38,683 nt of DNA. Source: Nocardiopsis trehalosi NBRC 14201 (GTDB lineage: Bacteria > Actinomycetota > Actinomycetes > Streptosporangiales > Streptosporangiaceae). How positions within the stretch are numbered: position 1 is the first letter of the stretch; every line of letters starts with the position of its first letter. A program made the position numbers and the translations under genes. Location of the stretch: contig NZ_BCRK01000038.1 of assembly GCF_001552555.1 (NCBI RefSeq), forward strand, positions 1 to 38,683, in the 5' to 3' direction. A model generated the notes under the pieces. It was given only the letters and a program-made list of their open reading frames with translations, had not been told where the DNA came from and ran no database searches. Below are positions 11,897 through 38,596 of the stretch, one piece after another.

Positions 11897-12544
11897 GTGA
11901 CCGAAAAGCGCATCAGCCTCGACGAGGCGCTCGACCTCACCCGGACGGGCGACATCTGGGTCTTCCGCGGCCGCTCGGTGCCGGACCGCGCCATCCAAGT
12001 GACGACGAACAGCCCGGTCAACCACGTCGGCATGTCCGTCGTCATCGAGGACCTGCCGCCCTTGATGTGGCACGCCGAACTGGGCCGCTCCCTGCGCGAC
12101 ATGTGGTCGGGCAACCACCACCGCGGCGTGCAGCTCCACGACCTCCGCGACGCCGTCACCGTGTGGGCGGAGCGCTACGGGCAGCGGGGGTGGCTCCGCC
12201 AGCTCGACACGGAGGTCACGCGCGAGGCCGAGGACGCGGTGCTGCGGACGATCGCGCGGCTCGACGGCACCCCGTTCCCGTCGACCGCCCAGCTCGCTGG
12301 CCGCTGGCTGCGCGGGCGGTCCCCGCTCCCCCGGCGCCGCCGCACCGGCGGCGGGCTGGAGTCGGCGTACTGCGCCGAGGTCGTAGCCCTGACCTACGAG
12401 GCGATGGGGCTGCTGCCCACCGGCCGCCGCCCCAACTGGTACGACCCGGGCCGCTTCTGGAGCGGCGACGACCTCGACCTGCTCGGCGGCGCCCGCCTCG
12501 GCGGCGAGATCGCCGTCGACGTCCCGCGCCGCCCCGCCGGGTAA
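11897..12544 (+). CDS. permuted papain-like (NlpC/P60-superfamily) protein
   Basis: 215 residues. TGDIWVFRG near the N-terminus and NSPVNHVGMSV (His43) are the permuted order of the YiiX/NlpC-P60 fold. The candidate nucleophile is Cys159 in ESAYCAEVVALTYEAMG. In permuted members the His block precedes the Cys block, as here. Such proteins are thiol hydrolases or acyltransferases acting on amides or lipids (superfamily knowledge). There is no signal peptide, so it is probably cytosolic. The GTG start is chosen for the 6-nt spacing to TAGGCT; the gene is divergent from the small membrane protein. The substrate is unknown. Confidence 0.75.
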   Translation: MTEKRISLDEALDLTRTGDIWVFRGRSVPDRAIQVTTNSPVNHVGMSVVIEDLPPLMWHAELGRSLRDMWSGNHHRGVQLHDLRDAVTVWAERYGQRGWLRQLDTEVTREAEDAVLRTIARLDGTPFPSTAQLAGRWLRGRSPLPRRRRTGGGLESAYCAEVVALTYEAMGLLPTGRRPNWYDPGRFWSGDDLDLLGGARLGGEIAVDVPRRPAG

Positions 12545-12888
12545 GGGTCCTCAGCCGCTTCCGGATCAGCGGGCGGCCTCGCCCCTGCCGCCCCTACCGC
12601 GCCTGCTCGGCGGGCCGGCGCAGCGGGGGCCCTCAGCCGCGTTCGCCGGCCGACCCGCGAGTTCCCCCCTGGCCCGACCGGTCGGGCCGATCGGCGCCGT
12701 GAGCGTCGTTCGGGCCCCCGCTGCGCGAAGCCGCGGAGTCCGCACAGCAGGGGCGTGGCCGCGAACCCGGATCGATCTCGGAACACGACCTGGCCCCGGG
12801 GCCCGGACGCCGCCGGCGCGCCGACCGCCCACGCCGCGCGGTCGGTCGGCGTATCGCGCCCGGGCCGCGAGCCTCCGCGTCCTCGCCC
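12545..12888. repeat. convergent intergenic region with structured repeat, copy A
   Basis: 344 bp without a gene. It shares blocks with 38163-38319 in the same order: 18 bp with one mismatch (12563-12580), about 22 bp (12711-12733) and 24 bp with one mismatch (12747-12770). Within it, GCGCAGCGGGGGCCC (12618-12632) pairs exactly with 12712-12726, enclosing the perfect palindrome at 12671-12688. It may be a diverged intergenic element or a terminator module. Confidence 0.6.
12671..12688. terminator. perfect 18-bp palindrome, terminator-like
   Basis: GGCCCGACC joined to GGTCGGGCC. It lies between the convergent genes ending at 12544 and 12889, inside the larger 15-bp-arm inverted repeat. Confidence 0.55.
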
Positions 12889-13140
12889 TCAGACCCGTGC
12901 TCCGCGCCGGTTCGCCCGGCTCCGGGCGGCCGCCCAGGCCAGGAGCACCGCTCCGGCCGCGCCGACGACGAGGTCGGTCCAGATCGGCAGCCCCGCCGCG
13001 CGCAGCAGCCCGGCCACGCCGAAGCTCGTGTCCGCCAGCGCCTCCGTGGCGTACGACCCGAAGCCCTGGACGGCCAGCACCGCCCCGAGCACCCACCGCG
13101 CCCCCTGCCAGCCGTCGCCGCCCCCGCTGTTCCGCGTCAC
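12889..13140 (-). CDS. small two-helix membrane protein, target of the adjacent TetR
   Basis: 83 residues. Two hydrophobic segments, around residues 15-33 and 55-72, flank ATEALADTSFGVAGLLR; the C-terminus ARSRANRRGARV is strongly basic and should be cytoplasmic. The GTG start is chosen for GGAGG about 8 nt upstream; the reading frame continues upstream only through the operator region. It faces a TetR gene across 96 bp holding two operators, so it is the likely regulated target. The small size and basic tail resemble a DoxX- or SMR-sized accessory protein, but I do not recognise the family. Confidence 0.7.
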   Translation of the reverse strand: MTRNSGGGDGWQGARWVLGAVLAVQGFGSYATEALADTSFGVAGLLRAAGLPIWTDLVVGAAGAVLLAWAAARSRANRRGARV

Positions 13141-37392: not shown

Positions 37393-38160
37393 ATGGCAAC
37401 GAACCCGGTCCGGAAGGTCTGCGTCATCGGCGCCTCGGGGAAGCTCGGGCGCTACATGGTCCGGCACGCGCTGGACCGCGGCTACGCGGTCGTCGGCGTG
37501 TGCCGCGAACGCAGCGTCCCCAAGCTCGCCGCGTACGAGGGCGAGATCACGGTCGTCCCCGGCGCCACGAACGACCCCGACGTGATCCGGCGGGCGGTCG
37601 CCGGGTGCGACGGCGTGCTGACCGTCCTGGTCCCGTGGGGGGTGCGGCAGTACTCGTCGGGCACGGCGCAGGCGGTCCTCGACCACGCCGACCCCGGCGC
37701 GCGCCTGGTCTTCTCCTGCGGGTGGCACATCACCCGGGACGGCCTGGACCGCTACTCGCGGCTGTTCCGGGCGACCCTGAAGGTCACCGCCCGGCTGGCC
37801 CGCCTGGTGCGCGCCGTCGAGATCGACGACCAGGTCGAGGCGTGCCGGCGGATCTTCGCCAGCGACCGCAGGTGGACCGTCGTCCGGGGCAGCAGCCTCG
37901 AAGAGGGCGAGAGCCAGGGCCTGCCCGTGTGGAGCCGCCACGTCGGCGACCCCGTCCTGGCGAGCAACCGGACCCGGCGGGTCGACTTCGCCCTGTTCAT
38001 GGTCGAGGCGCTCACCGACGACACGCTCGTCCACGAGGCCCCGGCGATCGTCGGGCGCCTGACGCCCAGCGCGCTGGCCCACGCCGGCCGGACCGACCCG
38101 CCCGCGCAGGGCACGGCCGCCCCTCGGCGGACACGCCCTGAGGAGGGCGCTCCGGGGTGA
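37393..38160 (+). CDS. NAD(P)-binding (NmrA/SDR-like) oxidoreductase
   Basis: 255 residues. The dinucleotide motif GASGKLGRYM lies at 13-22 after the first strand VCVIG. VVGVCRERSVPKLA and VVPGATNDPDVIRRAVAG follow as in atypical SDRs of the NmrA/SDR_a5 type. The classical YxxxK pair is not obvious: the region around residues 116-135 has RYSRLFRATLK instead, so catalysis is uncertain. The C-terminal tail (about 225-255) is Pro/Arg/Gly-rich. The gene is divergent from the TetR gene and shares its operator; GGGAG precedes the ATG. Confidence 0.88.
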   Translation: MATNPVRKVCVIGASGKLGRYMVRHALDRGYAVVGVCRERSVPKLAAYEGEITVVPGATNDPDVIRRAVAGCDGVLTVLVPWGVRQYSSGTAQAVLDHADPGARLVFSCGWHITRDGLDRYSRLFRATLKVTARLARLVRAVEIDDQVEACRRIFASDRRWTVVRGSSLEEGESQGLPVWSRHVGDPVLASNRTRRVDFALFMVEALTDDTLVHEAPAIVGRLTPSALAHAGRTDPPAQGTAAPRRTRPEEGAPG

Positions 38161-38374
38161 CGGGATCGGCGGGCGGCCTCACCGCTGCTGCGCCGGCCGG
38201 CGCGGCGGAGGCCACAGGCGGTACTCGCAGGCCGTCCGCGAGCGGCCGTGCGGGCCCCGCTGGGCGCAGCCGCAGCGCCCGCGGAGCGGCGCCCGGCAGG
38301 GGCGTGGCCGCGAGCCCGGTACGGTCCGCGACCACGGCCCGGCGCCGCACCGGGCCGCGCGGGCAGCGGGCCGG
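38161..38374. repeat. intergenic structured repeat, copy B
   Basis: 214 bp between convergent gene ends. Blocks shared with 12563-12770, in the same order, are 38163-38180 (18 bp, one mismatch), 38251-38272 and 38296-38319 (24 bp, one mismatch). An inner hairpin GGCCG/CGGCC surrounds 38236-38243. No gene is seen. Confidence 0.6.
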
Positions 38375-38596
38375 CTAGCGGTCGGCGTTGGGGCCGTAGC
38401 GGGTGTCGTGGTCGTCCGGGTCGTCGGGGTCGGCGGTGTTGCCGATGGCGGCGGCGACCGGCGGCAGCACCATGGCGACCACGCACATGCCCACCGCCCA
38501 CCCGGCCCCGAGCAGGTGGTAGACCGGCAGCGACCCGGCGAACAGCACCAGGCAGGTGCCCATCAGCCAGGCGTAGCGGCGGACCCGCCGTTTCAT
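38375..38596 (-). CDS. small two-helix membrane protein (DUF3099-like)
   Basis: 73 residues. A basic start KRRVRRYAW precedes helix 1 (LMGTCLVLFAGSLPVYHLLG); helix 2 (about 34-51) contains VGMCVVAMVLPPVAAAIGN. The tail is acidic (DPDDPDDHD). The shape, the PPVAA motif and the basic start resemble DUF3099 proteins of actinomycetes, which have no assigned function. The -10 TACGCT (38603-38608, minus strand) is 6 nt from the ATG, with GGAGGG between, so either a leaderless or a very close Shine-Dalgarno start is possible. Confidence 0.8.
   Translation of the reverse strand: MKRRVRRYAWLMGTCLVLFAGSLPVYHLLGAGWAVGMCVVAMVLPPVAAAIGNTADPDDPDDHDTRYGPNADR

What the first reader, a model, noticed from the sequence alone, without database searches (positions are those of the whole stretch)
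12563..12770. Diverged structured repeat at two convergent junctions
Three blocks (18, about 22 and 24 bp) occur in the same order here and at 38163-38319, 25 kb away. Copy A folds as 15-bp arms (12618-12632 with 12712-12726) around an 18-bp palindrome; copy B keeps a weaker version. Both lie between convergent gene ends. This could be a small non-autonomous element or a dedicated 3'-end module; I do not recognise it.
Basis: seen in the sequence. Interest (0 to 1): 0.55.

Follow-up and report, generated by a model that had tools for sequence, protein, structure and literature searches.

The report
Stop-codon-docking miniature transposon with hairpins
The two odd repeats are decayed copies of a small gene-less jumping DNA element, shared by Nocardiopsis-type actinobacteria, that often lands in gene stop codons without destroying them.

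Summary
The repeat is real. Copy A (about 12542-12792) and copy B (about 38139-38342) align far above shuffles. They belong to a dispersed family: at least 23 places in the window's own genome, 11 of them at contig ends, and 5 of 24 sampled other genera of its family. Intact relatives are 87-263 bp, show no gene, are framed by CTAG, and the 166-bp form folds end to end as one imperfect hairpin. Orthologous empty sites in a related species show insertion at C-TA-R with duplication of TA (CTA is not excluded). In one carrier genome the outer 16 bp match the ends of an IS5-family insertion sequence with the same target. So this is a MITE, probably driven by IS5/IS427-type transposases; none was found in the window's genome. 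Gene-end placement follows the target: CTAG is rare in genes, and 31 of 45 relatives sit exactly in a TAG stop, against 63 of 241 genomic CTAG sites; both edges keep TAG. Two unusual features remain: compensatory changes along the whole hairpin between genera, and hairpin modules gained at different positions. My paper searches found no description of the family.

The parts
12544..12790 (+). copy A of the MITE (decayed; about 249-bp subfamily with two hairpin modules); ends approximate to a base or two
   Evidence: 81% identity to the family consensus over 12557-12791; ends placed by alignment with CTAG-framed copies
12542..12543 (.). TA of the presumed left target duplication; with 12544 it is the TAA stop of the upstream gene 11897-12544
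   Evidence: right-hand counterpart decayed to TG at 12791-12792
12563..12580 (+). 5' inner end block (GGATCAGCGGGCGGCCTC), first block shared with copy B
   Evidence: relatives read GATCAGCGAGCGGC
12590..12631 (+). hairpin module 1 (GCCCCTACCGCGC ... GCGCAGCGGGGGCC)
   Evidence: absent from the 166-bp relatives
12671..12688 (.). 18-bp perfect palindrome GGCCCGACCGGTCGGGCC, near the apex of the predicted long hairpin of this copy
12713..12754 (+). hairpin module 2 (GGCCCCCGCTGCGC ... GCACAGCAGGGGC)
12747..12770 (+). 3' inner end block (GCAGGGGCGTGGCCGCGAACCCGG), last block shared with copy B
38139..38342 (+). copy B of the MITE (older, more decayed; ends approximate)
   Evidence: 73-84% identity to copy A in pieces
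11897..12544 (+). upstream gene of copy A, weak similarity to YiiX-type papain-like proteins; its stop codon lies at the insertion point
12889..13140 (-). possible small gene facing copy A (weak prediction)
   Evidence: codon score 17.4
37393..38160 (+). gene upstream of copy B (weak epimerase/reductase similarity); its last about 20 bp and stop lie inside the element
38375..38596 (-). gene facing copy B, stop TAG at 38375-38377

Best explanation
The repeat is a gene-less miniature inverted-repeat transposable element, inserted by a DDE transposase of the IS5 family (IS427-like) supplied by another element, present or past. Shown: paired inverted ends, insertion at C-TA-R with a TA-containing duplication, sites that are empty in a related species, many near-identical copies per genome in relatives, and placement in TAG stop codons. 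Shown for one genome only: outer ends and target shared with an IS5-family element. Inferred: that this transposase class moves the MITE everywhere. The element starts with G after the left TA, and C stands before the right TA, so both edges read TAG toward the flanking gene: a gene that ended at the target keeps a stop, and insertion there is close to harmless. CTAG is rare in genes, so target choice plus tolerance accounts for the gene-end and convergent positions. The end-to-end hairpin keeps its pairing by compensatory change between genera, which suggests that the fold matters for movement or for tolerance (for example termination or RNA processing); that step is inferred. Copies A and B are old, probably inactive insertions.
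For: Own genome: 39 matches at E<=0.01, merging to 23 places after three weak internal matches (C175, C196, C210) are dropped; lower bound, 40 of 155 candidates scored. Relatives: matches in 10 of 41 genomes; besides G000, five same-family genera carry strong multi-copy matches, and the other four genomes (same order or class) only 1-2 weak ones (19 candidates scored per genome in all but one genome). End patterns: 9/13/24/21/5/6 (3' end) and 6/9/23/16/3/1 (5' end) hits in G000/G007/G008/G010/G021/G023, reversed-pattern controls all 0. 45 distinct elements from 60 fetched regions: 41 of 45 begin CTAG, 25 have CTAG on both sides, 7 are CTAG/CTAA. Empty sites: two G008 insertions are empty in G041. 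IS5-family element in G021 (PF13340, PF01609, NF033580) with CTAG target and ends matching the local MITE ends at 14 of 16 and 15 of 16 positions, counted by eye. Stop placement 31 of 45 against 63 of 241 CTAG sites, Fisher p 7e-8; for 28 of 33 docked edges the opposite edge shows that the empty site already had TAG (27) or TAA (1), the other 5 edges are decayed. Convergent 18 of 43 against 184 of 960 adjacent gene pairs, p 7e-4. Covariation: 22 of 62 pairs changed on both sides, 96.2% of cells paired, 0 of 500 shuffles as high.
Against: No IS5-type transposase was found in the window's genome by two searches, and none with matching ends among the IS5-type hits of G007, G008, G010, G023. The shared-end evidence rests on one genome, and with up to 3 mismatches the same IS ends also match MITE ends of G000, G010 and G023, so it shows a shared end class rather than a private pair. 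The empty sites leave TA or CTA open, because C flanks the site; TA is preferred only because it makes the two ends symmetric. For the window copies there is no empty site and the duplication is decayed. The covarying structure was predicted from the same alignment, which favours it. Gene calls come from my own codon-usage script, not from an annotation.
Confidence: 0.88

Rival explanations
1. A functional 3'-end module: a conserved bidirectional terminator or RNA-processing hairpin kept by the host between genes.
For: End-to-end hairpin with compensatory changes and some G-U pairs; 31 of 45 at stop codons and 18 of 43 between convergent genes.
Against: Occupancy differs between related species; 8 of 43 lie between divergent genes; copy B folds no better than shuffles. 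Terminator signals were not scanned for.
Confidence: 0.12
2. A REP/RAYT-type palindrome family moved by a Y1 transposase, the hairpin being the mobile unit and the framing ends secondary.
For: The hairpin occurs outside the element in G007: 13 places aligned, one of which (L275) has MITE-like flanks, plus 1 in a 400-kb survey; and it occurs at several positions inside the element.
Against: The 166-bp element is multi-copy without the hairpin, with symmetric ends and a TA-containing duplication, typical of DDE transposition. In 400 kb each of G000 and G008 I judged no pattern hit outside elements to be a true hairpin, and total hits (8, 11 and 7 in G000, G007, G008) are close to the Markov control (13, 7 and 7). 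No Y1 search was made.
Confidence: 0.05
3. Two chance GC-rich intergenic similarities without common origin.
For: The 18-mer alone is not enriched over its reversed control.
Against: Full-length similarity far above shuffles and above 680 comparisons with other windows; multi-genus family with paired ends.
Confidence: 0.01

Closest known systems
IS5 family, IS427-type insertion sequences
   Same: 2-bp direct repeats are listed for most IS427-group elements in the table of PMC3281130 (passages seen); CTAG direct repeats are reported for an IS5-family mycobacterial IS (PMC9241763, passage seen); in G021 the same target and near-identical outer 16 bp.
   Different: No transposase gene; beyond the outer 16-18 bp the ends of the G021 IS and of the MITE do not look alike, while the MITE's own inner ends and core are shared between genera.
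NEMIS/Correia, ERIC/RU-1 and RUP miniature elements
   Same: Under 200 bp, non-coding, inverted ends with TA; RUP is linked to a resident IS by its ends (review PMC2229807, abstract and passages seen). That several of them form hairpins is recalled.
   Different: GC-rich rather than A+T-rich; C-TA-R target with stop-codon bias; exchangeable hairpin modules; other sequence and hosts.
MITEAba12 (Acinetobacter)
   Same: Non-autonomous, ends shared with a co-resident IS, spread over a bacterial family (PMC6382973, parts of the abstract and passages seen).
   Different: 9-bp duplications without a sequence trend; no stop-codon docking or modules in the passages seen.
ISLxc2/ISLxx4, IS481 family (Leifsonia)
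   Same: NCTAGN target and a stop codon within the insertion site (PMC2516522, passages seen).
   Different: There the transposase's own stop is meant; a 6-bp duplication does not fit the CTAA empty site here.

Membership tests
MITE | short, no coding capacity | tested here: met
   45 elements of 87-209 bp, plus a 263-bp copy in Murinocardiopsis; no predicted gene overlaps an element edge by more than 40 bp on both sides in 45; I did not run a separate ORF scan of each element
MITE | terminal inverted repeats | tested here: met
   both ends read GG..GTGTT; outermost helix of 17 pairs
MITE | target-site duplication with an empty orthologous site | tested here: met
   two insertions of G008 empty in G041; duplication contains TA, exact length 2 or 3 bp not settled
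MITE | multiple dispersed copies | tested here: met
IS5/IS427-driven MITE | ends shared with an autonomous IS in the same genome | tested here: inconclusive
   met in G021; not found in G000, G007, G008, G010, G023
IS5/IS427-driven MITE | mobilisation in trans by that transposase | not testable with these tools
   needs an excision or transposition assay
REP/RAYT palindromes | associated Y1 (HUH) transposase | not tested
Rfam RNA families | match above gathering score | tested here: not met
   0 matches in the window

The most novel reading that the evidence does not exclude
A mobile 3'-end cassette: an element whose target (C-TA-R), edge bases and end-to-end RNA hairpin act together so that it docks in stop codons, leaves TAG on both strands and adds a bidirectional terminator or processing hairpin. 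Its fold is selected because it makes insertion harmless, and its middle collects mobile hairpin modules.
Probability: 0.25. Interest if true: 0.72.

Novelty: new variant of a known kind. Interest (0 to 1): 0.5.

Why it matters
It gives a concrete, testable case of how a selfish element can live in a compact genome: a target that coincides with stop codons, plus edges that keep the stop. It may account for contig breaks in draft genomes such as this one (11 of 23 places lie at contig ends), and it gives a covariation data set to ask whether MITE hairpins are selected as RNA. The nested hairpin modules show one small repeat acquiring others.

Tried and rejected
Rejected: chance similarity; an IS481-type 6-bp NCTAGN duplication and a 4-bp CTAG duplication (the left edge reads CTAG where the empty site reads CTAA; one case, with 7 of 45 elements showing the same CTAG/CTAA edges); an Rfam family; the 18-mer as a family marker (control higher than signal); interrupted genes as the source of the edge stops (in 28 of 33 docked edges the empty site already has a TAR stop).

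Led nowhere: the IS5-type transposases of G008, G010, G023, G041 and G043, and one fragment in G007, show no ends like the local MITE in the 1.5-kb flanks held. The region of the G008 C9 element (L137) in G043 was too rearranged to read an empty site. A 1.2-Mb survey for hairpins outside the element gave counts near the Markov control; by eye one clear case in G007, and in G000 and G008 only those inside elements; the stretches of G000 and G008 were chosen on contigs known to carry elements, so they are not a random sample. Paper searches listed no report of this family.

Errors of mine: the pattern was malformed and its result is not used; three sequences were given on the wrong strand, replaced; one search used a script name that collides with a Python built-in, redone. 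(ten sequences) was aligned, but the pair count was run only on the eight-sequence alignment. Dropped rows: of 47 rows I dropped L150 (same element as L122) and one spurious 1799-bp pairing in L164 (recount).

Full report
What was checked. The window is one whole contig (C38) of a 6.38-Mb draft genome in 368 contigs. Copies A and B were read and aligned: score 99 against a maximum of 55 in 500 shuffles, and against a maximum of 59 in 680 comparisons of A with other windows. The blocks, the 15-bp arms and the 18-bp palindrome are as described. The arms are the inner halves of two separate hairpin modules. Copy A folds slightly better than its shuffles (z -2.07), copy B does not (z 0.22).

Family. 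A search with copy A gave 53 matches at E<=10, about 20 places below 1e-5; a consensus gave 39 at E<=0.01. Only 40 of the first-look candidates were scored in each of these calls, so the counts are lower bounds. Merged by hand, and with three weak internal matches dropped (C175, C196, C210), there are 23 places in the own genome; 11 of 23 lie within 100 bp of a contig end, as expected if young copies are too similar to assemble. In 41 genomes (own plus 40), 10 match: G000, five of the 24 other genera sampled in its family (G007, G008, G010, G021, G023, strong and multi-copy), and four genomes of the same order or class with 1-2 weak matches each (19 candidates scored per genome, all 4 in G032, so a zero there is not proof of absence). 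An exact pattern scan of named genomes found 37 stretches, in Nocardiopsis suaedae, N. listeri, Candidatus N. merdipullorum, Murinocardiopsis flavida, the MAG DX1.bin85 and Glycomyces fuscus TRM 49117 (the tool may leave out the window's own genome and near ones). Contig numbers and lengths identify G008 with N. suaedae, G007 with M. flavida and G010 with DX1.bin85. The last-named species is placed by NCBI in Glycomycetales, so either the element crosses orders or that assembly is misnamed; I did not test this.

Anatomy. Searches give 45 distinct elements with both ends, from 60 regions fetched around end matches; the other regions had one end, lay at contig edges or did not pass the end patterns. 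Lengths are 87, 113, 128, 135-136, 165-168 and 208-209 bp; the own-genome form is about 249 bp. Forty-one of 45 begin CTAG; 25 of 45 have CTAG at both sides; 7 of 45 have CTAG at the left and CTAA at the right. The outer ends differ between genera, while the two ends of one element resemble each other.

Insertion. For the element at G008 C7, genome G041 of the same genus has GGACCCTAGTCC where G008 has GGACCCTAG[element]CTAGTCC. For the one at G008 C15, G041 has CCCCTAAGGCC and G008 has CCCCTAGGGCG...CACGCCCTAAGGCC. The second shows that the G after the left TA belongs to the element and does not fit a 4-bp or 6-bp duplication. It leaves open whether TA or CTA is duplicated, because C flanks the site; TA places the two ends symmetrically and is preferred for that reason.

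Partner. G021 carries an insertion sequence of about 936 bp with an IS5-family transposase (PF13340 E 3.7e-28, PF01609 1e-10, NF033580 over its cut-off), framed by CTAG (four loci) or CTAG/CTAA (one) in the five loci with readable ends. Its outer 16 bp match the G021 MITE ends at 14 and 15 of 16 positions (by eye); with up to 3 mismatches they also match MITE ends of G000, G010 and G023. The assignment to the IS427 group rests on the target, the split reading frame and papers seen in passages, not on a phylogeny. In the own genome no IS5 transposase was found.

Stop codons. With a codon-usage gene caller of my own, trained on 400 kb each of G000, G007 and G008, CTAG sites are rare in genes: 14 of 241, while 82-84% of the sequence is coding; 63 of 241 are stop codons (with a lower score threshold, gives 64). 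Of the 45 elements, 31 sit exactly at a TAG stop (left 18, right 15, two at both), Fisher p 7e-8; against CTAG sites outside genes only, p 3e-7. Of these 33 docked edges, 28 have a readable opposite edge, and it shows that the empty site already had a stop there, TAG in 27 and TAA in 1; five are decayed. So these are true stops and not genes cut in two. In the own genome 10 of 21 other copies have the stop at an edge, although 11 of the 21 are cut by or lie next to a contig end. Neighbouring genes are convergent for 18, tandem for 17 and divergent for 8 of 43 (2 of 45 undetermined), against 184 convergent of 960 adjacent pairs. Caveats: G010 was scored with a model trained on only 5,400 codons, and G021 and G023 with the G007 model; the CTAG background comes from G000, G007 and G008 only, and includes edges of elements lying in those stretches, which should make the comparison conservative. 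The excess over the background may come from target choice or from loss of worse insertions; these data cannot separate the two.

Fold. The 166-bp form folds end to end. On 8 sequences from five genera, 62 pairs were predicted and 22 have changes on both sides with pairing kept; 96.2% of cells pair against 85.7% for shuffles, and 37-43% when the partner is slid. Helices deep inside, far from the outer ends, covary too, fixed internal loops persist, and at 3 of 62 pairs G-U is the commonest type. The structure was derived from the same alignment, and eight related sequences are few. Template-switch correction of imperfect palindromes could also produce two-sided changes, but would be expected to erase the fixed loops; this is an argument, not a test.

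Modules. The 166-bp form lacks the hairpin; it appears near the 5' side in one G008 copy, near the 3' side in the opposite arrangement in three G010 copies, just after the 5' end in G010 loci L280-L283, and on both sides in the own genome and in one M. flavida copy. In N. listeri and Ca. N. merdipullorum a different hairpin occupies the 5' position. In M. flavida the same hairpin occurs with other short flanks (13 places aligned; one, L275, has MITE-like flanks). So hairpins seem to be gained repeatedly; how they move is unknown.

Verdict. Ordinary in kind (a MITE), new as a family as far as the searches show. Notable for stop-codon docking, whole-length covariation and module gain. Copies A and B are old, decayed insertions.

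Noticed in passing
L265-L277 (G007, Murinocardiopsis flavida): REP-like hairpin of about 42 bp with short conserved flanks in most of 13 places (for example GGCTGCCGGAAAGCCTGCGCAC ... CCGCGACGGCCGAA), the same hairpin that sits inside the MITE.
   Followed up: partly
L098, L101 (G021): The second reading frame of the IS5-family transposase ends on the TA of the target duplication, so its stop codon is TAA or TAG depending on the site.
   Followed up: partly
L216, L218, L240, L246 (Nocardiopsis listeri, Ca. N. merdipullorum): The 5' hairpin position of the element is filled with a different hairpin (around CGGCGCTTGCGCCG).
   Followed up: partly
L225, L235 (Glycomyces fuscus TRM 49117): Typical 167-bp elements in a species that NCBI places in another order; horizontal transfer or a misnamed assembly.
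   Followed up: no
L222 about 92-354: A copy whose hairpin loop holds a tandem TGCGGAGCT-type repeat of about six units.
   Followed up: no
window 38140-38160: The last codons and stop of gene 37393-38160 lie inside copy B, so the element appears to supply the C-terminus.
   Followed up: no
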